A DNA stretch of 42,214 nt from Sedimentisphaerales bacterium (GTDB lineage Bacteria; Planctomycetota; Phycisphaerae; Sedimentisphaerales; SM23-30): assembly GCA_028281535.1 (NCBI GenBank), contig JANQJS010000014.1, positions 1 to 42,214 on the forward strand, read 5' to 3'. The position numbers were made by a program, and so were the translations under genes. How positions within the stretch are numbered: the stretch's first letter is position 1; every line of letters begins with the position of its first letter. The notes under the pieces are model-generated. The model was not told where the DNA came from, ran no database searches, and saw only the letters and a list, made by a program, of their open reading frames with translations. Below are positions 548-25,720 of the stretch, one piece after another.

Positions 548-670
548 CACTTTTACAATGAAATGATAACCTGCAGCCCTGCTATTGAATAAGAGAAATA
601 TATTAAGGCAATATGTATATAAGTGATATTCAAATTCAAGGATATTCTCATAATAAAAGGTAGAAAACAA

Positions 671-3600
671 ATGAATATATTTATCATTAGAAAAAGTTTA
701 GTCATGCAACTGAAAGTACTTGTTTTTGTATGTTGCCTTTTTATGAATTCTCTTGTTCTGTCTGGAGCGACCATCAATGTCCCGGCAGATCAACCCACGA
801 TTCAGGCCGGGATTGACGCCGCTGCTAGCGGTGATGAAGTGGTCGTTGCTACGGGCTTCTATTTTGAAACCATCAATTTTAACGGTAAATCGATTACCGT
901 GCGTAGCTCGAGTGGTAATCCTGATGATGCGTTTATCGATGGTAGTGGTAGTGGTCCTGTTGTCACCTGTGCGAATGGTGAAAGTTCAAGTACGGTGTTG
1001 TCCGGTTTTACGATTACGGGTGGCTCTGCTATCAATGGAGGAGGTATGTATATTTCTAACAGTAGCTCTCCAACGATCACTAACTGTGTTTTTATTTATA
1101 ACTCCGCCATTAATTCAGGTGGTGGTATGTTCGTATATGATAGCGAACCATCGATTAGTAACTGTAGTTTTGTGTTTAATTCAGTTTCTGGGAGTGGTGT
1201 TTTGCCCGGTGGTGGTGGTATGTGCGTAAGGACTTCTAGCTCTGCATCGATCACTGACTGTATTTTTATTGGAAATTCCGCCAAGTATTCTGGTGGTGGT
1301 ATTTTCATAGAATGGTCTAGCTTTGTATCGATCACTAACTGTGTTTTTCGTGATAATTCAGCTACTGGCCAGCCAAATGGGCCTAATGATCTTGAGGGTA
1401 AGGGGGCTGGTATATTGTTGTTTGAAGGATCTACAGCAACAATCATTGACTCTGTTTTTACTGGTAATTCGGCTGAAAGTGAAGCTGGTGCAGTGCTCGT
1501 AGCCAATCGTTGCAATGTATCGGCAACGAACTGTGTTTTTACTGGTAATTCCGCTGCAAATGGAGGTGCTATCGTGAGCAAACCTGAGGGAACTCTTACG
1601 CTTCTCCACTGCAGCCTGAGTGGAAATTCCGCAACAGGAATACATAATACGGATGTGGGGAGCTTAATTATAGTGGGTGATGGCTCAATAACGAATAGTA
1701 TTATCTGGGGTAATATCGGCGCTACTCCTAGACTAACCGGCCCAGCTATTACGGTAAAACATACTAACATTGAGGGTGGGTATTCAGGGGGTGTGAATAT
1801 TATTGACGCGGACCCACTTTTTGCAGACCCTGATGGTGCGGATAACATATTCGGTACAGCGGATGATAATCTGCGTTTACAATTGGGTTCACCTTCGATT
1901 GATAGCGGTGATAGTACCGAGGTGCCTACGGGTCTTACAACCGATCTGGATGGCAATCCGCGTATTATCAACGGTGTTGTGGATATGGGCGCCTATGAGT
2001 CTGGTAAGGTCCATAATATCACGCAATTCGTCTCTTATGGTACCATTCAATCAGCCATTGATGCGGCAAATGGTGGTGATGTCATTAAGGTTCTTCCGGG
2101 CACTTACGCTGAAACCATCGATTTTAAAGGTAAATCGATCACGGTTCGCAGCAGTAGCGGTGATCCCAATGATACGATCATCGATGGCGGTGGTAATGGC
2201 ACTGTTGTCACCTGTACGAGTGGTGTAGACCCGAATATCTTGTTGTCTGGTTTTACGATTACGAATGGTTTTACTAACGTGGGAACCGGTGGCGGTATGC
2301 GTATCTCTGGCTGTAGTGCTACAGTGACCCACTGTGTCTTTAGTGATAATTCAACCTTTTATGAAGGTGGTGGTATCTCGATAGGCGGTACCAGTGATCT
2401 TACGCTTACCCACTGTACCCTGAGTGGTAACGAAGCCGGTAATGATGGTGGTGGTATCTTGATAAAGGGTACCAGTGATCTTACGCTTACCCACTGTACC
2501 CTGAGTAATAATAAAGCTGATACTAATGATGGTCGTAATAGTAGTGGTGGTGGCATCTCAATGGCAGGTAACGGCGTTCTTACGCTTACCCACTGTACCC
2601 TGAGTGATAATTCCGCCTATTATGGTGGTGGTGTGTATGCACAGGATTCCAGCGAACTTACTTTCACCAACTGTACCTTAAGTGGTAATTCTGCCTTTGA
2701 TAGTGGTGGTGGTATCTCAATGGCAGGTAACAGCGTTCTTACTCTTGCCAGCTGTGTTTTGAGAGGTAATTCGATAAGTCTATTTGGTGGTGGTATGTAT
2801 GCACAGGATTCCAGCGATCTTACTTTGACCAACTGTACCTTGAGTGGTAATTCGGCAGCCTTTGGTGGCGGTGTGTATATAAAGGATTCCAGTGATCTTA
2901 CTTTAACCAACTGTACCTTGAGTGGTAATTCGGCAAATAATAGGGGTAATGCCTTAAGTGCAAATGGTAGTAGTAGTAGCTTGCTTACGAATTGTATTGT
3001 CTGGGGTAATCCCGGCAGTAATTCCCAAATACACGGCTCAGGTATTACGATCAATTATAGTAACATTCAGGGTGGGTATTCCGGTACGAATAACATCAAC
3101 GCCGATCCATCGTTTGTGGATGCCAATGGTGCGGATAATCAGTCTGGTACGTTAGATGATAATTTGCGTATACGGTTGAATTCCCCTTCGATTAATAGCG
3201 GTGATAATACCGCGGTGCCTGTAGGTATTATCACCGATCTGGATGGCAACTCACGTATTGTCGACGGTGTTGTGGATATGGGTGCCTATGAGTCTGCGTA
3301 TGATAAGATCCATAATATCACGCAATTGACCGATTATAGTACCATCCAATTAGCCATTGATGATGCGAATAATGGTGATATCATTGAGGTTCTTCCGGGC
3401 ACCTATGTTGAAACCATCGATTTTAAAGGTAAATCGATCACGGTTCGCAGCAGCAGCGGTGATCCTTCTAATACGATCATTGATGGCGGCGGCAATGGCT
3501 CTGTTGTCACCTGTGTGAGTGGTGAAGACCCAAATACCCTGTTGTCCGGTTTTACGATTACGGGTGGCTCTGCTGCCGAAGGGGCAGGTATGTATATTTC

Positions 3601-6535
3601 TAACAGCAGCTATCCTGCCGTGACCCATTGTATTTTTAGTGGTAATTCCGCCTCTTTTGAAGGTGGTGGTATGTTCGTCAGCACGTCTAGCTCTGTATCG
3701 ATCACTAACTCTGTTTTTAGTGGTAATTTCGCCTATTATGGTGGTGGTGTGATTTTAAATTTTTCTAGCTCTGCCTCGATCACCCAATCTGTTTTTAGTG
3801 GTAATTTAGCCGCTATTGAAGGTGGTGGTATCTTGGTGGACAATACCAGCGATCTTATTCTTACTAATTGTACCCTGAATGGTAATTCGGATAATTTTTG
3901 GAAAGGTGGTGGCTTAAATGTAATTGGTAATAGTAGTAGCTTGCTTACGAATTGTATTGTCTGGGGTAGCAATTCCAGCGGTGCTTCACCAATAATCGGC
4001 TCAGGTATTACGATCAATCACAGTAACATTCAGGGCGGGTATTCCGGTACGAATAATATCAGCGCAAATCCTCATTTTGTGGATGCCGATGGATTGGATG
4101 ATGTGCTGGGTACGCCAGATGATAATCTACGCTTGGAGGTTACTTCGCCTTCGATTAATAGCGGTGATAATACCGCGATACCTGTAGGTATTATCACCGA
4201 TCTGGATGGCAACTCACGTATTGTCGACGGTGTTGTGGATATGGGTGCCTATGAATCTGAGGATGATAGGGTTCATAATATAACTCAAGATATCTATTAT
4301 AGTACCATCCAATTAGCTATTGATGGGGCAATGGGTGGTGATGTTATTGAAGTTCTTCCGGGTACCTATATTGAAACGTTCGATTTTAAAGGTAAATCGA
4401 TCACCGTTCGCAGCAGCAGCGGTGATCCCACAAATACGATCGTCGATGGTGGTGGTAATGGCCCCGTTGTCACCTGTGCGAGTGGTGAAGACCCAAATAC
4501 CCTGTTGTCCGGTTTGACGATTACGGGTGGCTCTGCTGGCGCAGTGGGAGGAGGTATGTATATTTTTGGCAGTAGTCCTACGGTGACCCACTGTATCTTT
4601 AGTGGTAATTCTGCTTTTAATGGTGGTGGTTTGTTCATAGGGAGTAATAGCTCTGCATCGATTACTGACTGTATTTTTAACACCAATACCGCCAGCACTA
4701 TTGGTGGTGGTGGTGCTTTGTTCATAGGGAATTCTAACTCTGTATCGGTGACCCACTGTATTTTTAGTGGTAATTCCGCCGCCAGTGGTGGTGGTTTATC
4801 CATAGGGAATTCTAACTCTACATCGGTGACCAACTGCATATTTAGCGGTAATTCAGCAGGTGGCTTTGGTGGTGCCATATACAGTTTTAGTAGTGCTTCT
4901 TCTATTACTATTATCACCAACTGTACGCTAAGTGGTAATTCAGCAAGTGCTGATGGAAGTGGAATCTTTACCGATGGTTCAGCTCATTCTTTAATCACGA
5001 ATAGTATTGTCTGGGGTAATACCGGTGGTAGTTCCCAACTTATCGGTTCAGGTATTACGGTGAATCATAGTAACATTGAGGGGGGCTGGGGTGGATCCGG
5101 TACGAATAACATCAATGCAGATCCTCTTTTTGTGGATGCCGATGGTTTGGATAATGTGTTGGGTACGTCAGATGATAATGTGCGTTTACAGGCAGGTTCG
5201 CCTTCGACTGACACAGGCGATAATACCGCGGTACCTGCGGGTGTGACAACCGACCTGGATGGTACTGTACGTATCCTCAATGGAACGGTTGATATGGGTG
5301 CCTATGAGGCCGCGGTAGAGATCGTCCGTAATATCACGCAATGGATCGTTTATGGTACAATCCAATCGGCCATTGATGATTCCAACGCGGGTGATATCAT
5401 TGAAGCCGATCCGGGAACGTATTTCGAATCGATTAACTTCAATGGTAAATCGATTACCGTTCGTAGCAGTAGCAGTGATCCCACGAATACGATCATCGAT
5501 GGTGGTGGTAATGGCTCTGTTGTTACCTGTAATAATGGTGAAGACTCAAATACCCTGTTGTCCGGTTTTACGATTACGGGTGGTTCTGCTGGCAATGGCG
5601 GCGGCATGGCTATTGTTGGCAGTAGTCCTACGGTGACCCATTGTATTTTTGCAAATAATTCAAGCGGAGGTGGCTCTGGTATGTATCTTCGCAATAGTAG
5701 TTCCAATATTACCCACTGTATCTTTAATAATAACACGTCTTCTGGATTTGGTCCTGGTATGCTTGTTAGCGATAGTAGTGTCAACGTTACCCACTGTACC
5801 TTTTATAATAACTCCACCTCTGGATTTGGTGGTGGCGTGGGTCTTCTTTCCGGTTCTGCTTCATTCACTAATTGTCTTTTTAGTGGCAATTCATCTAACC
5901 TTGGAGGTGGCGGTGCATATGCTTTCGATGGTACTCACGCTTTTACGAACTGTACCTTCAGTGGTAATGTTAACAACACCTTAGGTAGTGGTCTATACGT
6001 TTTTGAAGGGACAGGTCCTACGCCTCAGGTCTCTATTATGAACAGTATTTTCTGGGGTAATACCGGTGGTCCACAAGTCAATGGACCTTCAGCGGCTCTC
6101 GTTGTGAATCATAGTAACATTGAAGGTGGCTGGAACGGTTCCGGTGTGAATAACATCAATCAGGATCCTCTTTTTGTAGATGCCGACGGCACGGATGATG
6201 TACTCGGTACGTTGGATGATAATGTGCGTTTACAGGCGGGTTCGCCTTGTATTGATGCCGGTGATAACACCGCGGTACCTGTAGGCATTACAATCGATCT
6301 GGATGACCAATTACGTATCCTGAACCACACTGTGGATATGGGCGCCTATGAATCTCAAATCGGTTGTAATTTATTGGGTGATATCAACTGTGATGGCATT
6401 GTTGATCTATTGGATTTATCACTTTTGGCAGATCACTGGTTATCGACCACTTATATTGGTGATATCAACTCTGATGGTATTGTCGATCTATTGGATTTAT
6501 CGCTTCTGGCAGGTAACTGGTTAGCAACCATTTAA
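671..6535 (+). CDS. Giant secreted five-module beta-helix protein with C-terminal dockerin-like repeats
   Basis: This is a 1954-residue protein. ATG at 671 is preferred over an upstream in-frame start at 623 because AAAGG lies just upstream and the N-terminus then reads as a signal peptide (charged start, then 'VLVFVCCLFMNSLVLSGA'). Five homologous modules of about 320-435 residues follow. Each opens with 'TIQ.AID....GD.I.V..GTY.E.I.F.GKSITVRSSS', runs through many short glycine/serine/asparagine-rich rungs ('CxFSGNSA..GGG'), then 'IVWGN', 'DPLFVDADG', and closes with 'DLDG..RI..G.VDMGAYES'. This pattern is typical of right-handed parallel beta-helix, choice-of-anchor surface proteins. The last ~60 residues carry two dockerin-like calcium loops ('GDINCDGIVD', 'GDINSDGIVD'). 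It probably acts outside the cell or at the surface, perhaps in polysaccharide binding or adhesion. No catalytic residues are identifiable, and enzymatic activity such as lyase is possible but unsupported. Confidence 0.9.
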   Translation: MNIFIIRKSLVMQLKVLVFVCCLFMNSLVLSGATINVPADQPTIQAGIDAAASGDEVVVATGFYFETINFNGKSITVRSSSGNPDDAFIDGSGSGPVVTCANGESSSTVLSGFTITGGSAINGGGMYISNSSSPTITNCVFIYNSAINSGGGMFVYDSEPSISNCSFVFNSVSGSGVLPGGGGMCVRTSSSASITDCIFIGNSAKYSGGGIFIEWSSFVSITNCVFRDNSATGQPNGPNDLEGKGAGILLFEGSTATIIDSVFTGNSAESEAGAVLVANRCNVSATNCVFTGNSAANGGAIVSKPEGTLTLLHCSLSGNSATGIHNTDVGSLIIVGDGSITNSIIWGNIGATPRLTGPAITVKHTNIEGGYSGGVNIIDADPLFADPDGADNIFGTADDNLRLQLGSPSIDSGDSTEVPTGLTTDLDGNPRIINGVVDMGAYESGKVHNITQFVSYGTIQSAIDAANGGDVIKVLPGTYAETIDFKGKSITVRSSSGDPNDTIIDGGGNGTVVTCTSGVDPNILLSGFTITNGFTNVGTGGGMRISGCSATVTHCVFSDNSTFYEGGGISIGGTSDLTLTHCTLSGNEAGNDGGGILIKGTSDLTLTHCTLSNNKADTNDGRNSSGGGISMAGNGVLTLTHCTLSDNSAYYGGGVYAQDSSELTFTNCTLSGNSAFDSGGGISMAGNSVLTLASCVLRGNSISLFGGGMYAQDSSDLTLTNCTLSGNSAAFGGGVYIKDSSDLTLTNCTLSGNSANNRGNALSANGSSSSLLTNCIVWGNPGSNSQIHGSGITINYSNIQGGYSGTNNINADPSFVDANGADNQSGTLDDNLRIRLNSPSINSGDNTAVPVGIITDLDGNSRIVDGVVDMGAYESAYDKIHNITQLTDYSTIQLAIDDANNGDIIEVLPGTYVETIDFKGKSITVRSSSGDPSNTIIDGGGNGSVVTCVSGEDPNTLLSGFTITGGSAAEGAGMYISNSSYPAVTHCIFSGNSASFEGGGMFVSTSSSVSITNSVFSGNFAYYGGGVILNFSSSASITQSVFSGNLAAIEGGGILVDNTSDLILTNCTLNGNSDNFWKGGGLNVIGNSSSLLTNCIVWGSNSSGASPIIGSGITINHSNIQGGYSGTNNISANPHFVDADGLDDVLGTPDDNLRLEVTSPSINSGDNTAIPVGIITDLDGNSRIVDGVVDMGAYESEDDRVHNITQDIYYSTIQLAIDGAMGGDVIEVLPGTYIETFDFKGKSITVRSSSGDPTNTIVDGGGNGPVVTCASGEDPNTLLSGLTITGGSAGAVGGGMYIFGSSPTVTHCIFSGNSAFNGGGLFIGSNSSASITDCIFNTNTASTIGGGGALFIGNSNSVSVTHCIFSGNSAASGGGLSIGNSNSTSVTNCIFSGNSAGGFGGAIYSFSSASSITIITNCTLSGNSASADGSGIFTDGSAHSLITNSIVWGNTGGSSQLIGSGITVNHSNIEGGWGGSGTNNINADPLFVDADGLDNVLGTSDDNVRLQAGSPSTDTGDNTAVPAGVTTDLDGTVRILNGTVDMGAYEAAVEIVRNITQWIVYGTIQSAIDDSNAGDIIEADPGTYFESINFNGKSITVRSSSSDPTNTIIDGGGNGSVVTCNNGEDSNTLLSGFTITGGSAGNGGGMAIVGSSPTVTHCIFANNSSGGGSGMYLRNSSSNITHCIFNNNTSSGFGPGMLVSDSSVNVTHCTFYNNSTSGFGGGVGLLSGSASFTNCLFSGNSSNLGGGGAYAFDGTHAFTNCTFSGNVNNTLGSGLYVFEGTGPTPQVSIMNSIFWGNTGGPQVNGPSAALVVNHSNIEGGWNGSGVNNINQDPLFVDADGTDDVLGTLDDNVRLQAGSPCIDAGDNTAVPVGITIDLDDQLRILNHTVDMGAYESQIGCNLLGDINCDGIVDLLDLSLLADHWLSTTYIGDINSDGIVDLLDLSLLAGNWLATI
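770..6356 (+). repeat. Five tandem intragenic modules in the beta-helix gene
   Basis: Modules begin near 770, 2009, 3308, 4271 and 5324. The boundary is marked by a recurring 'H/RNITQ' segment after 'MGAYES'. DNA similarity between modules is high in the framing parts (for example the coding stretch for 'GKSITVRSSSGDP' recurs almost unchanged), while the rung-rich centres differ in length. The pattern suggests growth by unequal recombination, with the upstream partial gene as a further copy. Confidence 0.85.
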
Positions 6536-16558: not shown

Positions 16559-17296
16559 ATGAACAAGAAAACATATGTTATTTCTGGAATAATCATTGTA
16601 GGAATATTATCGCTTTATTTTAAAGGGGGGAGTAATTCTTTAAATGTTCAAATGTACCCAGTTCCAACGGGTTTGCCGCCAGAAGTGGCGACTGAATTAC
16701 CTGAACTCTTAAGTCGATTGGAAAAATTAATTGAAAAGAAAAGGCCACAATCAGTTCAGTACCTTCAGGAGGGATTAACCGGACAAGAATTAGATGACCT
16801 TCAAATGAAGTATAAGATTTTATTGCCATATGAATTGCGAGAGTTTTATAAATGGCATAATGGTTCTAGGCGGTTTAGTAATAATAAATACATGCCTGAT
16901 AATCAGTTTATCCCAGGAAAAGATTTTGTTCCATTAGAAGATGCTTTAAAAAATAATTTAGAAATAAAAAAATATAAAGACAAACATCAGTATTCATTTC
17001 TACCCGATCTGACATTTAATAATTCGTGGATACAAATATTTGACGACGGAGCTGGTGATGGTTATTATTTTGATCCACAACGTTCAGGAGATCAAGGGTA
17101 TGTTTTTGATAGTTTTTTAGAGACTGGATATTTTAGATTTTATCCATCTTTGAAAAATTTACTCATGGAGTTTATTGAATGCTATGAAAAAGATATATTT
17201 TATATGACAACAATGGATGGTATGCCTTATTACGATATGCATTATGAAAAAGCTGAAATTGTTAAAAATAAATATTCAGTGGAAAGGGAGTATTGA
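16559..17296 (+). CDS. SMI1/KNR4-family protein with N-terminal membrane anchor
   Basis: A 245-residue protein. Residues ~5-22 are hydrophobic ('YVISGIIIVGILSLYF') and would anchor it in the membrane. The body shows the SMI1/KNR4 pattern: 'KYKILLPYELREFYKWHNGS' (around residues 83-102), 'FVPLEDAL', then 'WIQIFDDGAGDGYYFDPQ' with the acidic-glycine loop, 'GYVFDSF'. In bacteria this fold is frequent among immunity proteins of polymorphic toxin systems and also occurs in unrelated regulatory proteins; a membrane-tethered form is less usual. GAGGG lies at 16551-16555, rather close to the ATG. The gene overlaps a short ORF at its stop (TGATG), so it once headed a coupled pair. No toxin gene is recognisable beside it. 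Confidence 0.78.
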   Translation: MNKKTYVISGIIIVGILSLYFKGGSNSLNVQMYPVPTGLPPEVATELPELLSRLEKLIEKKRPQSVQYLQEGLTGQELDDLQMKYKILLPYELREFYKWHNGSRRFSNNKYMPDNQFIPGKDFVPLEDALKNNLEIKKYKDKHQYSFLPDLTFNNSWIQIFDDGAGDGYYFDPQRSGDQGYVFDSFLETGYFRFYPSLKNLLMEFIECYEKDIFYMTTMDGMPYYDMHYEKAEIVKNKYSVEREY

Positions 17297-20529: not shown

Positions 20530-20602
20530 GTTGGTGTGGTTTGACTTTTTAGTTGGTTTCACATATAATAGTGTGTAAACCAGCCAAAAAATCCACACCA
20601 AC
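20530..20602 (+). promoter_or_regulatory. Near-consensus promoter with nested inverted repeats, type VII-like operon
   Basis: TTGACT (20541-20546), 17 bp, TATAAT (20564-20569): the best promoter in the window. It is flanked by a perfect 10-bp inverted repeat, GTTGGTGTGG (20530-20539) and CCACACCAAC (20593-20602), with arm centres 63 bp apart. A second imperfect inverted repeat, TGGTTTCACA (20554-20563) and TGTGTAAACCA (20572-20582), embraces the -10 box. The architecture implies tight control by a dimeric, possibly loop-forming, regulator. A 6-bp hairpin (TCTCGC/GCGAGA, 20619-20633) lies in the leader just before the ribosome-binding site. Confidence 0.75.
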
Positions 20603-20648: not shown

Positions 20649-20921
20649 ATGGCCAAAGCTCATGTGAATCCGGAAGAACTTAGACGGTTTGCCAAAGATT
20701 TAAATAAGTTCAGCGCCGAACTGAAAGGATTGATGAGTGGATTACATGCTCGTTTGCGAGGACTGGAAGCGAGTTGGCAGGATCAGGAGCAGAAAAAATT
20801 TACCGACGAATTTGAAATGGCCATGAAAAGTTTGAGCCGCTTTTTTGAATCGTCAGATCAACATTCTGCCTTTTTGGTCAAAAAAGCTCGCCATATAGAA
20901 AATTACCTGCAGCAACGATAG
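20649..20921 (+). CDS. WXG100-like small protein (W-x-D variant), predicted type VII-like substrate or partner
   Basis: A 90-residue, almost fully helical protein without signal peptide or membrane segment. The central turn reads 'LEASWQDQEQKKFTDEF', with W43-Q-D45 in place of the WXG turn between two long amphipathic helices. Length, charge and the aromatic-x-x-hydrophobic spacing agree with the WXG100/ESAT-6 family, whose members are exported as dimers by FtsK-type ATPases. ATG at 20649 is chosen over an in-frame ATG at 20553 because GGAG lies at 20639-20642 and the upstream extension spans the promoter region. It is first in an operon with a coiled-coil protein, a second W-x-D protein and an EssC-like ATPase, which strengthens the call. 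Confidence 0.72.
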   Translation: MAKAHVNPEELRRFAKDLNKFSAELKGLMSGLHARLRGLEASWQDQEQKKFTDEFEMAMKSLSRFFESSDQHSAFLVKKARHIENYLQQR

Positions 20922-20930
20922 GAGCCTTTG

Positions 20931-21545
20931 ATGAGCGACTTTGCCCGCGCAGATATTCAACGGCTCGATGAATTTCGAGTCACATTGGGGAAATTTTCCG
21001 ATATTGCAACGACCACATTGGAAGAAGCTATTATGGATGTACAGCGAACCCAAATGTGGTTGAATCAAGAGCAAACAACTTACTGGAAAACACAAATTCG
21101 AAAGTTTACCGAACAACTGCAAAGAGCCAAGCAGGAATTGAGAAGTAAAATGAGTTTTGACCAGATGAGTGATCTCAAAGGGCAACCTTCCTATGTGGAT
21201 GAGCGGAAAGCGATCAAGAAAGCTGAAATGAAATTAGAATATGCAGAAGAAAAAATGAAAAACGTTAAGCGTTGGATTCGATTAATGGAAAAAGAATCTC
21301 AGGATTTTCGAGGTGCCCTCCAAGGGCTCAATAATGTGCTTCGCGTTGATCTTCCAAATTCCAGAAATCTTCTTGAACGGATGATTCAATCGTTGATGGA
21401 TTATTTTGCTGCCTCGCCAAACAGTCAGATAGCACCTAATTCAGTGACAGCTCAACAGGATTTTCGACGTGCGATTGAAGCGTTGGAAGATCAAAGCGAA
21501 GAAGATTCAACTGAATCTAAAAGTGATAAGGATGAGAGACTATGA
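20931..21545 (+). CDS. Coiled-coil protein of the type VII-like operon
   Basis: A 204-residue, soluble, highly charged helical protein. Long heptad-rich stretches run from residue ~70 to ~125 ('KAIKKAEMKLEYAEEKMKNVKRW'), and the N-terminal ~65 residues ('RLDEFRVTLGKFSDIATTTLEEAI', 'QMWLNQEQTTYWKTQIRKF') resemble a WXG100-type helical hairpin with tryptophan at the turn. ATG at 20931 fits GGAG at 20921-20924 better than the TTG three bases upstream. The C-terminus is acidic and low-complexity ('EDQSEEDSTESKSDKDERL'). Its stop overlaps the next start (ATGA), so translation is coupled. It may be a secreted partner, chaperone or a cytosolic linker to the ATPase; the family was not recognised. Confidence 0.72.
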   Translation: MSDFARADIQRLDEFRVTLGKFSDIATTTLEEAIMDVQRTQMWLNQEQTTYWKTQIRKFTEQLQRAKQELRSKMSFDQMSDLKGQPSYVDERKAIKKAEMKLEYAEEKMKNVKRWIRLMEKESQDFRGALQGLNNVLRVDLPNSRNLLERMIQSLMDYFAASPNSQIAPNSVTAQQDFRRAIEALEDQSEEDSTESKSDKDERL

Positions 21546-21769
21546 GTGTCAGTGAAAGTCAGGCAAAGCTGGGTGAAGCAGGCAAGGAATTATTGATTCA
21601 CTGGCAACAATTAAAACAGGTGTGGCGTGATGATAATTCACGTCATTTTGAACAGCGATATATTGCTGCAATCGAAAGAGAACTGCGAAAATCAGATTTA
21701 GCATTAAAGCAAATGGGCACGATGATCAATCAGTGCCGGCATGAGTGTAAAGATCAACAGTTTGGGTAA
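21542..21769 (+). CDS. Second small W-x-D protein of the type VII-like operon
   Basis: A 75-residue helical protein whose start ATG overlaps the preceding stop (ATGA, 21542-21545). 'QLKQVWRDDNSRHFEQRYI' (W28-R-D30) parallels 'ASWQDQEQKKFTDEF' of the first gene: tryptophan, x, aspartate, then an aromatic seven residues on. It is shorter than typical WXG100 proteins and keeps two cysteines near the C-terminus ('NQCRHECKD'). It probably forms a helical hairpin and could pair with the first protein as a heterodimer, as EsxA/EsxB do. This is inferred from motif and context only. Confidence 0.65.
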   Translation: MSVSESQAKLGEAGKELLIHWQQLKQVWRDDNSRHFEQRYIAAIERELRKSDLALKQMGTMINQCRHECKDQQFG

Positions 21770-21790
21770 TTATTAGAGAAAGAGAGTGTC

Positions 21791-24700
21791 GTGACGCAAC
21801 TTCTGGAAGATTATTTAAAAGCTGATTTGCCTGAGCATGGTGGAAATTATTTCCAGCGGCAACGTAGTGCATTTCAGCAACTCATCCAATTGTCGAAAGA
21901 AAAGACTGGACCCATCAAATTGGAGTTAGAGTCACAGCGTGATTCAGCCAAAGCGATCGCTCAGCGTGAATTTGATGAGGCTAAAGAGTTATGTGACAGT
22001 TCCTATCAATCAAAATTGGCGCAAGTTGAAAAAGATCGACGTGAGGCTCTTGACCAAATTGAACTGCATGATGGTTCTCATCGAGAGAAAATGGAAACGC
22101 AATATCGTCGTCAGGTCGACCAGCTTAACTCTGAGGCAGAAGCCAAATTGCATGAAGCGAAAAAAACACGCGACTATGATGTTTTGCTATCTGATACGGT
22201 CTGTGATGAGACATTAAAGAAAATCGAATTACAGCGTAAGCAGACAGAATCGCAGAATCCGCAAAATATAAAAAAACTTGAGCTGCTACAAGAGGAGTTA
22301 AAAGAGACGCTAAAACTCTATCGTCAATCAGCTGTAACGAGTGAACCTAGTGAGCCTCAGACGCACGAAACGCATACGCAAGCCAGTGAGGCATTTGATC
22401 AACATTATCAACATATGCAATATTATTTACAAAAGCTGCATTTGTTAAAAATCCCAGGTTTTTTTAGCCAGGCACGCCCATTTTTATTATTTGCATTTTT
22501 GACGGGGTTACCTGTGGGAGTCGTGTGGTTTTTACAAAGTCAAAATATTGTTGAAATGCCGGCATTTAAAATCGTTGGCCCGGTAACGTTTGGTGTAAGT
22601 GCATTTTTGGTTTTTCTATTAGGTTGGCTGTTGCGAAGTAAAAGCAAAAAAGATATCCAAAAGATCAACCATGCTTTTAATCAGGATCTTCAGTCAGCGT
22701 TGAGTGTCAATGATCAGTGGTTGGATTTAACAATCAAATTCCTCGATTCAAAAATTGTCCAAACCAAACAAACTCAGCAAGAAGATACTGAAAAAACCAA
22801 ATTGGTCTATAAAGAGATAAAGACTAAAGTTGAATCTCAATTGCATACGGTTGGCCAAAAACTTCAGGAAGATTTCCAAACGCAAACCAAAGTCCTGGAT
22901 GAACAGAAATCGCAAGGACTGAAAAAAACAGAGGCGACATATTCCCAGAATAAAGAGTCCTTGGATCAAGAACTTGCAACAGGTTTGGAGGAAATTAATC
23001 AACAATTACAAGAAAAGCTTGGTGATATCCAGGATGGCTATCAGACAGGTTTTGATCGCCTGAAACATCGTTGGCAGCAAGGGTTAGATTGTATTAATCA
23101 ATGCTTGGAAACCACTGCGTCATTTTCACCTGATACGTTAGCCTGTTGGCAAGATCCACGCTGGCATCAATGGTCAGGGTTGGATAAGCCAGAAAATGTG
23201 TTTCGTTTTGGTAACTTAACTGCTCAAGTTGATGATCTGGATGATGACGTGAAATCAATGGCAGCTTTTTCTCAAGAAGATGGCCAAGTTCATTTTCCTG
23301 CAATTTTGTCATTTTCTGATCCTTGTTCTCTGCTATTAGAAACGCAGAGAGAAGGCAGGCAGCAAGGTATTGATATTTTACGTGGTGTGATGTCACGACT
23401 TTTTGTCTCGTTGCCAGCAGGACGCGTGCATTTTACGATTTTAGATCCGATTGGTTTAGGGGAAAATTTTGCAGGATTTATGCATGCCGCCGATTACCAG
23501 GATGCCTTGGTCGGCGGTCGCATCTGGACGGAAGCAACTCAAATACAACAGCAGCTGGTTGATATTACTGAGCATATGGAAAATGTGATTCAAAAGTATC
23601 TACGTAATGAATTTGAAACCATCGAGCAATATAATGAGCAGGCCGGAGAATTGGCTGAGCCTTACCGTTTTTTAGTGATTGCTGATTTTCCAAGAAATTT
23701 TAATGAAGAAAGTATCAAACGCCTACGTAGTATTATTGATAGTGGAAAACGATGCGGTGTCTATACATTAATTATGTATGATTCACGTCAAAAGTTGCCT
23801 GAAGGAATTGATGTTGGGGATTTAGCCTCGAGTGGATTGCATTTAAAATGTGACGAGAGTACATATCGTTGGCAAGATGACATTTATCGTCGGTTTGATT
23901 TAACATTAGATCAGCCGCCTACAGAGGAATTACTGACATCGATTGTACAAAAAGTAGGCAAGGCCAGCCTGGAGGCATCTCGCGTTGAAGTTCCTTTTGA
24001 AATTATTGCTCCGAGTAAGGATGAGTATTGGAGTAAGGATTGTTCCAAAAGTTTAGATATTCCTGTAGGGCGATGTGGAGCAACGCGATATCAACAAATT
24101 AAATTAGGCCATGGTGTTGCGCAGCATGCGTTGATTGCCGGTAAAACGGGTTCTGGTAAATCGACCTTACTGCATGTGATGATTACCAATTTGGCATTAT
24201 GGTATAGCCCTGACCAGGTTGAATTATATTTGATTGACTTCAAAAAAGGGGTGGAATTTAAGACCTACGTGACTAATAAATTACCTCATGCTCGAACGGT
24301 CGCTATTGAGAGTGATCGAGAATTTGGGTTGAGTATCTTGCAGAAACTTGAAGCGGAAATGACGCGTCGTGGCGATTTGTTTCGTGATGCAGGTGTTCAG
24401 GATTTAGCTGGCTACCGTCAGGCAACAGGTGAAATAATGCCGCGAGCCATTTTGATGGTCGATGAATTTCAAGTCTTTTTTAGTGAAGATGATAAATTGG
24501 CCCAGGAAGCTGCATTGCAGATTGAGCAATTGGTGCGTCAAGGTCGAGCGTTTGGGATTCACGTTCTTTTAGGCTCGCAAACACTTGGTGGAATGTCAGG
24601 ATTGTCACGAAGTACGATTGGGCAGATGGCAATTCGTATTGCGCTTCAATGTTCGGAGACAGATTCGCAATTTATTCTTGATGATGAAAACGTTGCCGCA

Positions 24701-25720
24701 CGATTACTTTCGCGGCCAGGTGAAGCAATTTACAATGATGCAGGTGGGCAAGTTGTTGCGAATAGCCCATTTCAAACTGCCTGGCTTTCGGATGATCAGC
24801 GCGATATTTATTTGTCAGGGGTTCACCAGTTGGCAGATGAGAAATCAATACAAACAGATTCTATGATCGTATTTGAAGGTAATGTGCCAGCGAATTTAGC
24901 AGATAATCAAATGCTGGAAGAATGCATGGCAAATGGTGTGGCGAATTCTGCTGCTGCTCATGCCTGGTTGGGTGAGCCGGTTGCCATCAAGGATCCAACC
25001 TCAATTATTTTTCGCCGTCAGAGTGGTACGCATTTACTCATGACCGGGCAGCGAGAAGATGCGTCATTAGGATTACTGACCAGTTCGATGTTAAGTTTGG
25101 CGGCACAATCAAAATCATCTGAAGCGAAATTTATGATTTTAGATGGTAGTCCAGCAGATGCTCCATTAGCTGGGCAATTAGCGCAGGTTGGCGAAAAGCT
25201 TCCACATGTCTGTGAGGCTGTTCAGTGGCGAGATGTTGAGGCTGCCATTCAGTCCGTCCATCAGGAAATGCAAAAGCGATTGGATGAAGATTTATTTAGT
25301 GAGCAGGCGATATATATATTTGTGTATGGCTTACAGCGATATCGTATGTTGCGTCGGAATGAAGATGATTTCGGTTTTTCTATGGATGAGGAAAGCAAAC
25401 CAAGGCCGGATAAGCAGTTTGCAGAAATTCTCAAAGATGGCAGCACGGTTGGGATTCATGTACTCGTGTGGGCGGATACTTTAGCGACCATTGAGCGAAC
25501 TTTAGATCGACAGGTGATACGAAATTTTGATAATCGCGTTTTGTTTCAAATGAGTGCTGCGGATTCCAGTCAATTGGTGGATACGCCTTTGGCAAATCAA
25601 CTAGGGCATCATCGTGCATTATTTTATAGTGAAGAGAGCGGGGTTTTGGAAAAATTTCGACCTTATGCGATGCCGCATCAGGATTGGTTGGATAAATTTT
25701 CTGCTAAGTTAGAAAATTAA
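21791..25720 (+). CDS. FtsK/EssC-like membrane ATPase with three ATPase folds
   Basis: A 1309-residue predicted motor of a type VII-like secretion system. It starts at GTG 21791 after GAAAGAGAG. Residues ~1-215 and ~300-430 are long coiled coils. Two membrane helices lie between them (~230-249 'PFLLFAFLTGLPVGVVWFL' and ~259-281). Three FtsK-type folds follow. D1 (~500-700) has no P-loop: its position reads 'ETQREG' (517-522), and the Walker B-like strand is 'FLVIADF' (~627-633). D2 (~760-1010) is intact: Walker A 'GKTGSGKST' (784-792) and Walker B 'AILMVDE' (886-892), plus 'LGSQTLGGMSG'. D3 (~1060-1300) is degenerate, with 'GQRED' from residue 1086. Three tandem ATPase folds are the layout of EccC/EssC, unlike DNA-pumping FtsK; there is no gamma DNA-recognition domain. 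It closes the operon. Confidence 0.85.
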   Translation: MTQLLEDYLKADLPEHGGNYFQRQRSAFQQLIQLSKEKTGPIKLELESQRDSAKAIAQREFDEAKELCDSSYQSKLAQVEKDRREALDQIELHDGSHREKMETQYRRQVDQLNSEAEAKLHEAKKTRDYDVLLSDTVCDETLKKIELQRKQTESQNPQNIKKLELLQEELKETLKLYRQSAVTSEPSEPQTHETHTQASEAFDQHYQHMQYYLQKLHLLKIPGFFSQARPFLLFAFLTGLPVGVVWFLQSQNIVEMPAFKIVGPVTFGVSAFLVFLLGWLLRSKSKKDIQKINHAFNQDLQSALSVNDQWLDLTIKFLDSKIVQTKQTQQEDTEKTKLVYKEIKTKVESQLHTVGQKLQEDFQTQTKVLDEQKSQGLKKTEATYSQNKESLDQELATGLEEINQQLQEKLGDIQDGYQTGFDRLKHRWQQGLDCINQCLETTASFSPDTLACWQDPRWHQWSGLDKPENVFRFGNLTAQVDDLDDDVKSMAAFSQEDGQVHFPAILSFSDPCSLLLETQREGRQQGIDILRGVMSRLFVSLPAGRVHFTILDPIGLGENFAGFMHAADYQDALVGGRIWTEATQIQQQLVDITEHMENVIQKYLRNEFETIEQYNEQAGELAEPYRFLVIADFPRNFNEESIKRLRSIIDSGKRCGVYTLIMYDSRQKLPEGIDVGDLASSGLHLKCDESTYRWQDDIYRRFDLTLDQPPTEELLTSIVQKVGKASLEASRVEVPFEIIAPSKDEYWSKDCSKSLDIPVGRCGATRYQQIKLGHGVAQHALIAGKTGSGKSTLLHVMITNLALWYSPDQVELYLIDFKKGVEFKTYVTNKLPHARTVAIESDREFGLSILQKLEAEMTRRGDLFRDAGVQDLAGYRQATGEIMPRAILMVDEFQVFFSEDDKLAQEAALQIEQLVRQGRAFGIHVLLGSQTLGGMSGLSRSTIGQMAIRIALQCSETDSQFILDDENVAARLLSRPGEAIYNDAGGQVVANSPFQTAWLSDDQRDIYLSGVHQLADEKSIQTDSMIVFEGNVPANLADNQMLEECMANGVANSAAAHAWLGEPVAIKDPTSIIFRRQSGTHLLMTGQREDASLGLLTSSMLSLAAQSKSSEAKFMILDGSPADAPLAGQLAQVGEKLPHVCEAVQWRDVEAAIQSVHQEMQKRLDEDLFSEQAIYIFVYGLQRYRMLRRNEDDFGFSMDEESKPRPDKQFAEILKDGSTVGIHVLVWADTLATIERTLDRQVIRNFDNRVLFQMSAADSSQLVDTPLANQLGHHRALFYSEESGVLEKFRPYAMPHQDWLDKFSAKLEN

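What the first reader, a model, noticed from the sequence alone, without database searches (positions are those of the whole stretch)
20649..25720. Minimal type VII-like secretion operon in an apparent Planctomycetota genome
Four tightly spaced genes encode two small helical proteins with a W-x-D turn, a coiled-coil protein and a 1309-residue membrane ATPase with the tandem triple-ATPase layout of EccC/EssC. Seen: order, overlaps (ATGA), motifs. Known: WXG100 proteins are exported by such ATPases, chiefly in monoderms and mycobacteria. Inferred: this is a reduced secretion or surface system in a diderm. The usual partners (EccB/D/E, MycP, EssA/EssB/EsaA, YukD) are absent from the window, so how substrates would cross an outer membrane is open.
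Basis: partly seen in the sequence, partly recalled or inferred. Interest (0 to 1): 0.78.

Follow-up and report, generated by a model that had tools for sequence, protein, structure and literature searches.

The report
Stand-alone minimal type VII-like operon
Four genes in a planctomycete genome encode two tiny hairpin proteins, a long coiled-coil partner and a membrane-anchored pump ATPase; they are a real, widely conserved version of a minimal 'type VII-like secretion' cassette that earlier genome surveys had already noticed in two-membrane bacteria, but whose job has never been tested.

Summary
At 20649-25720 four co-directional genes encode W1 (90 aa, Pfam WXG100, E 2.9e-10), CC (204 aa, predicted long two-helix hairpin), W2 (75 aa) and a 1309-aa FtsK/SpoIIIE ATPase with a transmembrane hairpin and three RecA folds. 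W2, unrecognised by Pfam, is a second WXG100-like protein (profile-profile E 1.8e-6). All four genes occur together in at least 49 of 80 named loci, mostly planctomycete and verrucomicrobial, with no other shared neighbour. The ATPase is nearest EccC/EssC, not FtsK. Only its middle fold keeps a Walker A motif.

It is not a degraded ESX or Ess system. It matches a kind already described in 2012 for planctomycetes and verrucomicrobia: solo WXG proteins with a distinct three-fold ATPase, only the middle fold active. Relatives are H. pylori HP0062/HP0066 and TerY-P/CoCoNuT-linked modules. Added here: the fixed W1-CC-W2-ATPase set, the membrane hairpin (reported absent in CoCoNuT-linked forms), an Imm33-like domain on some CC proteins, and absence of the classical export signal (0 of 26 W1). 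The likeliest function is ATP-driven handling or export of a W1/CC/W2 complex at the inner membrane. Secretion is unproven.

The parts
20541..20569 (+). sigma-70-like promoter match (TTGACT-17-TATAAT), the best in the region
   Evidence: 11 of 12 consensus positions; consensus match only (15 sites found, 12.7 expected by chance); 80 bp before the W1 ATG
20649..20921 (+). W1: WXG100-family protein, 90 aa, W-x-D turn
   Evidence: Pfam PF06013 E 2.9e-10, 40.7 bits over the 27.3 cut-off; the only WXG100 over cut-off in its genome; family profile matches HP0062 structure 3fx7 at 1.4e-12 and EsxB/EsxA structures
20931..21545 (+). CC: 204-aa coiled-coil protein, two long helices (2-79, 89-161) forming a hairpin, low-confidence tail
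   Evidence: AF2 pLDDT 89.5; homologue directly upstream of the ATPase in about 25 relatives; no Pfam/NCBIfam family; some relatives carry a C-terminal Imm33-like domain PF24719
21542..21769 (+). W2: second WXG100-like protein, 75 aa, W-x-D turn
   Evidence: no Pfam hit; iterated profile merges with W1; hhalign W1 vs W2 90% probability, E 1.8e-6; EsxA structures at E 0.002
21791..25720 (+). ATPase: 1309 aa, EccC/EssC-like FtsK/SpoIIIE superfamily
   Evidence: Pfam FtsK_SpoIIIE 9.4e-38; EccCa 6.6e-33 against FtsK 1.1e-9; PDB profile search best hit EccC 7.7e-44
22478..22534 (+). transmembrane helix 1 of the ATPase (residues 230-248)
   Evidence: hydropathy scan; 98 of 103 homologues have at least one such segment before the ATPase folds, 82 exactly two
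22565..22621 (+). transmembrane helix 2 of the ATPase (residues 259-277)
23198..24010 (+). RecA-like fold 1 (about residues 470-740), no Walker A
   Evidence: AF2 model; one GxxxxGK[ST] per homologue, never here
24053..24835 (+). RecA-like fold 2 (about residues 755-1015), catalytic: Walker A GKTGSGKS at 784-791 (24140-24163), Walker B VDEF at 890-893
   Evidence: (invariant G-K-S and D-E-F columns)
24953..25705 (+). RecA-like fold 3 (about residues 1055-1305), no Walker A

Best explanation
The operon is a planctomycete member of the stand-alone 'minimal T7SS' cassette: an inner-membrane EccC/EssC-like ATPase, two WXG100-like small proteins (W1, W2) and a long helical-hairpin partner (CC). Shown: gene content, predicted folds, the single active site and conservation. 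Inferred: W1 and W2 pair, as WXG100 proteins do, and pack with the CC hairpin into a pre-secretion complex, comparable to an LXG domain with its two Lap partners. The complex docks on the cytoplasmic ATPase hexamer, and hydrolysis in the middle fold moves it, or one of its members, to or across the inner membrane. Any crossing of the outer membrane would need unlinked factors.
For: WXG100 assignment of W1 and of W2 by profile. ATPase nearest EccC/EssC by family models, PDB profile and Foldseek. Conserved TM hairpin. The four genes recur together with no other shared neighbour, so they are likely a functional unit. The W1 family's nearest solved structure is HP0062, a hairpin dimer with a WRD turn whose gene cluster holds an FtsK/SpoIIIE protein (PMC3397514). 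LXG toxins travel with pairs of WXG100-like partners (PMC10765036).
Against: No classical signal: YxxxD/E is in the last 35 residues of 0 of 26 W1 and 0 of 27 W2. No YukD or YukC/EssB in the genome and no known channel partner. Apart from the operon, no other WXG100 and no LXG protein over cut-off in the genome. CoCoNuT-linked relatives lack TM segments, so this ATPase type can act without a membrane (PMC11090510). Complex formation was not modelled. CC showed no specific structural relative.
Confidence: 0.55

Rival explanations
1. The cassette does not secrete: the ATPase with its WXG100-like and coiled-coil partners is an intracellular stress or anti-phage module. The membrane hairpin is a tether, and the ATPase remodels or positions the CC protein and its C-terminal cargo.
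For: The nearest plasmid homologues sit in Ter surroundings: a Rhodococcus plasmid ATPase has an N-terminal TerD domain beside TerD/DUF475 genes; a Caballeronia plasmid has WXG100 and ATPase with VWA, PP2C, Ser/Thr kinase, CARF and helicase genes. In CoCoNuT type III-A loci the same kind of ATPase lacks TM helices and accompanies a coiled-coil fused to a nuclease-like domain (PMC11090510). No export signal.
Against: The versions in Planctomycetota and Verrucomicrobiota have a conserved TM hairpin, and their neighbours are mainly ordinary metabolic genes; among 98 flanking proteins only scattered PADLOC hits, one DpdF the strongest.
Confidence: 0.3
2. The ATPase is a DNA translocase or conjugative coupling protein, and the small proteins are unrelated cytoskeletal or partition factors.
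For: The middle fold alone resembles FtsK motor and TcpA structures strongly (Z 31.7 and 28.0).
Against: Three folds with only the middle one active; whole-length best match is EccC; no FtsK gamma domain in the Pfam scan; the genome has a separate FtsK; FtsK sequences form their own clade (100/100); WXG100-like proteins are encoded next to it in most loci.
Confidence: 0.05
3. The operon is a decayed remnant of a classical ESX or Ess system.
For: Classical partners (YukD, YukC/EssB) are missing.
Against: The same four genes recur across Planctomycetota and Verrucomicrobiota with intact frames and strong conservation of the active site.
Confidence: 0.03

Closest known systems
Stand-alone WXG / YueA-like three-fold ATPase cassette (Zhang et al. 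2012, PMC3482391, Table 1 note 6; Anantharaman et al. 2012, as cited in PMC11090510)
   Same: Solo WXG proteins with an ATPase of three HerA/FtsK folds of which only the middle is active; planctomycetes and verrucomicrobia are named
Helicobacter pylori HP0062/HP0066 'minimal type VII' pair (PMC4978471, PMC3397514)
   Same: Diderm host; HP0062 is the nearest solved structure to W1 (3fx7, 1.4e-12), a hairpin dimer with a WRD turn; gene cluster with an FtsK/SpoIIIE protein
   Different: Gene content between HP0062 and HP0066 was not compared here
[quoted passage not shown]
   Same: Two WXG100 proteins (one without WxG), a coiled-coil protein, ATPase with N-terminal coiled coil and only D2 active
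   Different: There: no TM helices, CC fused to a nuclease-like domain, flanked by TerY-like VWA genes. Here: TM hairpin, no nuclease, no TerY-P
T7SSa EccC / T7SSb EssC systems
   Same: Membrane ATPase with three tandem RecA folds; WXG100 partner
   Different: D1 inactive here; WxD instead of WxG; no YxxxD/E signal; no YukD or EssB in the genome
LXG toxins with Lap1/Lap2 partners (PMC10765036)
   Same: A long helical protein encoded beside two WXG100-like proteins
   Different: CC carries no toxin domain; homology to LXG was not shown

Membership tests
Type VII secretion system (T7SSa/T7SSb) | EccC/EssC-type membrane ATPase with tandem FtsK/SpoIIIE folds | tested here: met
Type VII secretion system (T7SSa/T7SSb) | WXG100-family protein encoded with the ATPase | tested here: met
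   W1 over Pfam cut-off; W2 by profile
Type VII secretion system (T7SSa/T7SSb) | W-x-G motif in the turn | tested here: not met
   0 of 26 W1 and 0 of 27 W2 have WxG; all have WxD
Type VII secretion system (T7SSa/T7SSb) | YxxxD/E export signal near the C terminus | tested here: not met
   0 of 26 W1, 0 of 27 W2
Type VII secretion system (T7SSa/T7SSb) | Walker motifs intact in D1 | tested here: not met
   The single Walker A lies in the middle fold in all homologues that span it
Type VII secretion system (T7SSa/T7SSb) | Ubiquitin-like YukD/EsaB and EssB/YukC partners | tested here: not met
   No match in the 99.4% complete genome, while one control genome exceeds the cut-off for each family (B. 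subtilis among those ringing)
Type VII secretion system (T7SSa/T7SSb) | EccB and EccD partners | tested here: inconclusive
   No match, but no control genome exceeded the cut-off either
Type VII secretion system (T7SSa/T7SSb) | Demonstrated secretion | not testable with these tools
   needs experiment
Stand-alone WXG / YueA-like ATPase cassette (Zhang 2012) | ATPase with three HerA/FtsK folds, only the middle active | tested here: met
Stand-alone WXG / YueA-like ATPase cassette (Zhang 2012) | Solo WXG protein, no fused toxin | tested here: met
Stand-alone WXG / YueA-like ATPase cassette (Zhang 2012) | Mobile | tested here: inconclusive
   Patchy (31 of 246 genomes of the phylum), no shared neighbours, plasmid relatives; no mobility genes tied to it
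CoCoNuT type III-A extension | TerY-like VWA/TerY-P neighbours and nuclease-fused coiled coil | tested here: not met
FtsK DNA translocase | Gamma domain and placement in the FtsK clade | tested here: not met
   no gamma domain; separate FtsK

The most novel reading that the evidence does not exclude
A self-contained protein-export machine of only four genes in diderm bacteria, in which a TM-hairpin-anchored ATPase hexamer is both motor and membrane passage, and the two WXG100-like proteins deliver a coiled-coil carrier whose C-terminal cargo varies (none, Imm33-like; nuclease-like in CoCoNuT relatives).
Probability: 0.15. Interest if true: 0.8.

Novelty: new member of a known kind. Interest (0 to 1): 0.42.

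Why it matters
WXG100/FtsK pairs in Gram-negative bacteria have been noted since about 2011 but not shown to secrete anything (PMC10765036). The set defined here is minimal and conserved, and it also occurs in Verrucomicrobium sp. BvORR106 (L181, a named strain rather than a MAG). That makes the question testable: can an EccC-like ATPase work without the EccB/D/E or EssA/EssB/EsaA channel, and on what?

Tried and rejected
A shared neighbour beyond the four genes: the largest other cluster was two-component regulators at mixed positions, rejected as unrelated. CC as a polymorphic toxin: the structured C-terminal extensions found resemble one domain, Imm33-like, not varied toxins. Fold relatives of CC: only generic long-helix matches, none significant. 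Deep placement of the ATPase by a single-fold tree: separate from FtsK, but its relation to EccC is unresolved because of long branches. Defence-island context: flanking genes are mainly metabolic. Further WXG100 or LXG substrates in the genome: none over cut-off. Anantharaman 2012 is not held, and Sutcliffe 2011 was seen only as a citation; both are known here only through papers that cite them.
Full report
What is there. Four + strand genes run without large gaps from 20649 to 25720: W1 (20649-20921), CC (20931-21545), W2 (21542-21769, ATGA overlap with CC) and the ATPase (21791-25720). A sigma-70-like match lies 80 bp before W1 (consensus only). The genome is 4.44 Mb, 99.4% complete, and holds one copy of the ATPase and a separate FtsK. 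Nearest named homologues are Phycisphaerae and Sedimentisphaerales MAGs. An Omp85 protein is encoded, as expected of a diderm.

The small proteins. W1 passes the Pfam WXG100 cut-off and is the only protein in the genome to do so. Its family profile finds HP0062 of H. pylori first among solved structures (1.4e-12), then EsxB/EsxA. W2 has no Pfam match, but its iterated profile merges with W1, profile-profile comparison gives 90% probability, E 1.8e-6, and EsxA is the best PDB match at E 0.002. Both families have an invariant W-x-D instead of W-x-G. HP0062 also has WRD (PMC3397514). The YxxxD/E signal is absent from all 26 W1 and 27 W2. In 23 of 27 W2 a cysteine lies in the last 12 residues, unexplained. 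CC is predicted as two helices of about 75 residues in a hairpin (pLDDT 89.5). In part of the relatives it carries an extra C-terminal domain matching Imm33-like PF24719 (3.1e-11 in the best case). The window's CC lacks it.

The ATPase. Family models rank EccCa, EccCb and EssC (1e-28 to 1e-33) far above FtsK (1e-9). A profile of 31 homologues finds EccC first in the PDB (7.7e-44). The AF2 model of residues 455-1309 (pLDDT 88) has three RecA-like folds. Foldseek ranks whole EccC first (1.9e-33), and structural alignment to EccC covers the model from end to end; the middle fold alone aligns best to FtsK motors (Z 31.7), as expected for one superfamily. Every homologue that spans the site has exactly one GxxxxGK[ST], in the middle fold. 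Upstream of the folds a TM hairpin is conserved: 82 of 103 sequences with exactly two segments, 98 with at least one. The flanking N-terminal parts look like coiled coil from sequence (apolipoprotein-like match; inference). A tree of single folds separates FtsK fully but does not resolve the relation to EccC.

Distribution and context. The ATPase is in 31 of 246 genomes drawn across the phylum and intact or partial in about 15 of 59 closer relatives (the other matches there are FtsK). Among 80 named loci at least 49 hold all four genes; many of the others are cut by contig ends, but five with more than 6 kb upstream (L121, L135, L145, L146, L166) show only the ATPase. Hits include Planctomycetota, Verrucomicrobiota and a few MAGs with other labels, possibly misbinned. 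No neighbour beyond the four genes is shared; neighbours are mainly metabolic, not defence genes. More distant relatives sit elsewhere: a Rhodococcus plasmid in the reversed order ATPase-CC-small-W1, with a TerD domain on the ATPase; a Caballeronia plasmid beside VWA, PP2C, kinase and CARF genes; and a Bacteroidota-like contig with an ATPase, several WXG100-like proteins and coiled-coil proteins (L184).

What is known already. Zhang et al. [quoted passage not shown] The H. [quoted passage not shown] The CoCoNuT paper describes two WXG100 proteins, a coiled-coil protein and the same kind of ATPase as an extension of type III-A systems and cites the stand-alone form (PMC11090510). A 2023 review notes that Gram-negative cases are not functionally confirmed (PMC10765036). 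So the kind is known; this operon is a member.

How it most likely works. Shown: parts, predicted folds, single active site, conserved set, membrane hairpin. Inferred: W1 and W2 pair, bind the CC hairpin, and the complex is driven to or across the inner membrane by the ATPase hexamer. This fits T7SS logic and the LXG/Lap precedent. Against it: no export signal, no known channel subunits, and relatives without membrane segments in defence-type loci. The intracellular stress/defence reading is therefore kept at 0.3.

Limits. Complexes could not be modelled. EccB/EccD absence is not conclusive because no control genome exceeded those cut-offs. Nothing here tests secretion.

Noticed in passing
window 16559-17296 (+): SMI1/KNR4 (SUKH-1) protein with an N-terminal hydrophobic segment, Pfam 4.8e-13, about 3 kb upstream of the operon; SUKH proteins are often immunity proteins.
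   Followed up: partly
window 623-6535 (+): 1970-aa protein of repeated beta-helix-like units ending in dockerin-like 'GDINCDGIVDLLDLSLLA' motifs; a second such end lies at 56-508.
   Followed up: no
L069:1486-2517, L074:11875-12891, L081:2279-3376 and others: The CC protein carries a C-terminal Imm33-like domain (PF24719) in some Phycisphaerae; an immunity-type domain on a type VII-like component is odd.
   Followed up: partly
L182:10492-14457: Rhodococcus plasmid homologue of the ATPase has an N-terminal TerD domain and lies beside TerD and DUF475 genes.
   Followed up: partly
L184:5029-11192: Bacteroidota-like contig in a viral collection: ATPase followed by several WXG100-like small proteins, a CC-like protein and another long coiled-coil protein.
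   Followed up: partly
window 21542-21769 (W2) and relatives: A cysteine near the C terminus of W2 is kept in 23 of 27 sequences; no explanation.
   Followed up: no
L121, L135, L145, L146, L166: ATPase without recognisable W1/CC/W2 despite more than 6 kb of upstream sequence; partners may have diverged or moved.
   Followed up: no
L033, L037-L039 (own genome contig C56, 1672-4245): Two neighbouring 675-710 aa ORFs with several weak, sub-threshold WXG100-profile matches; probably generic helices.
   Followed up: no
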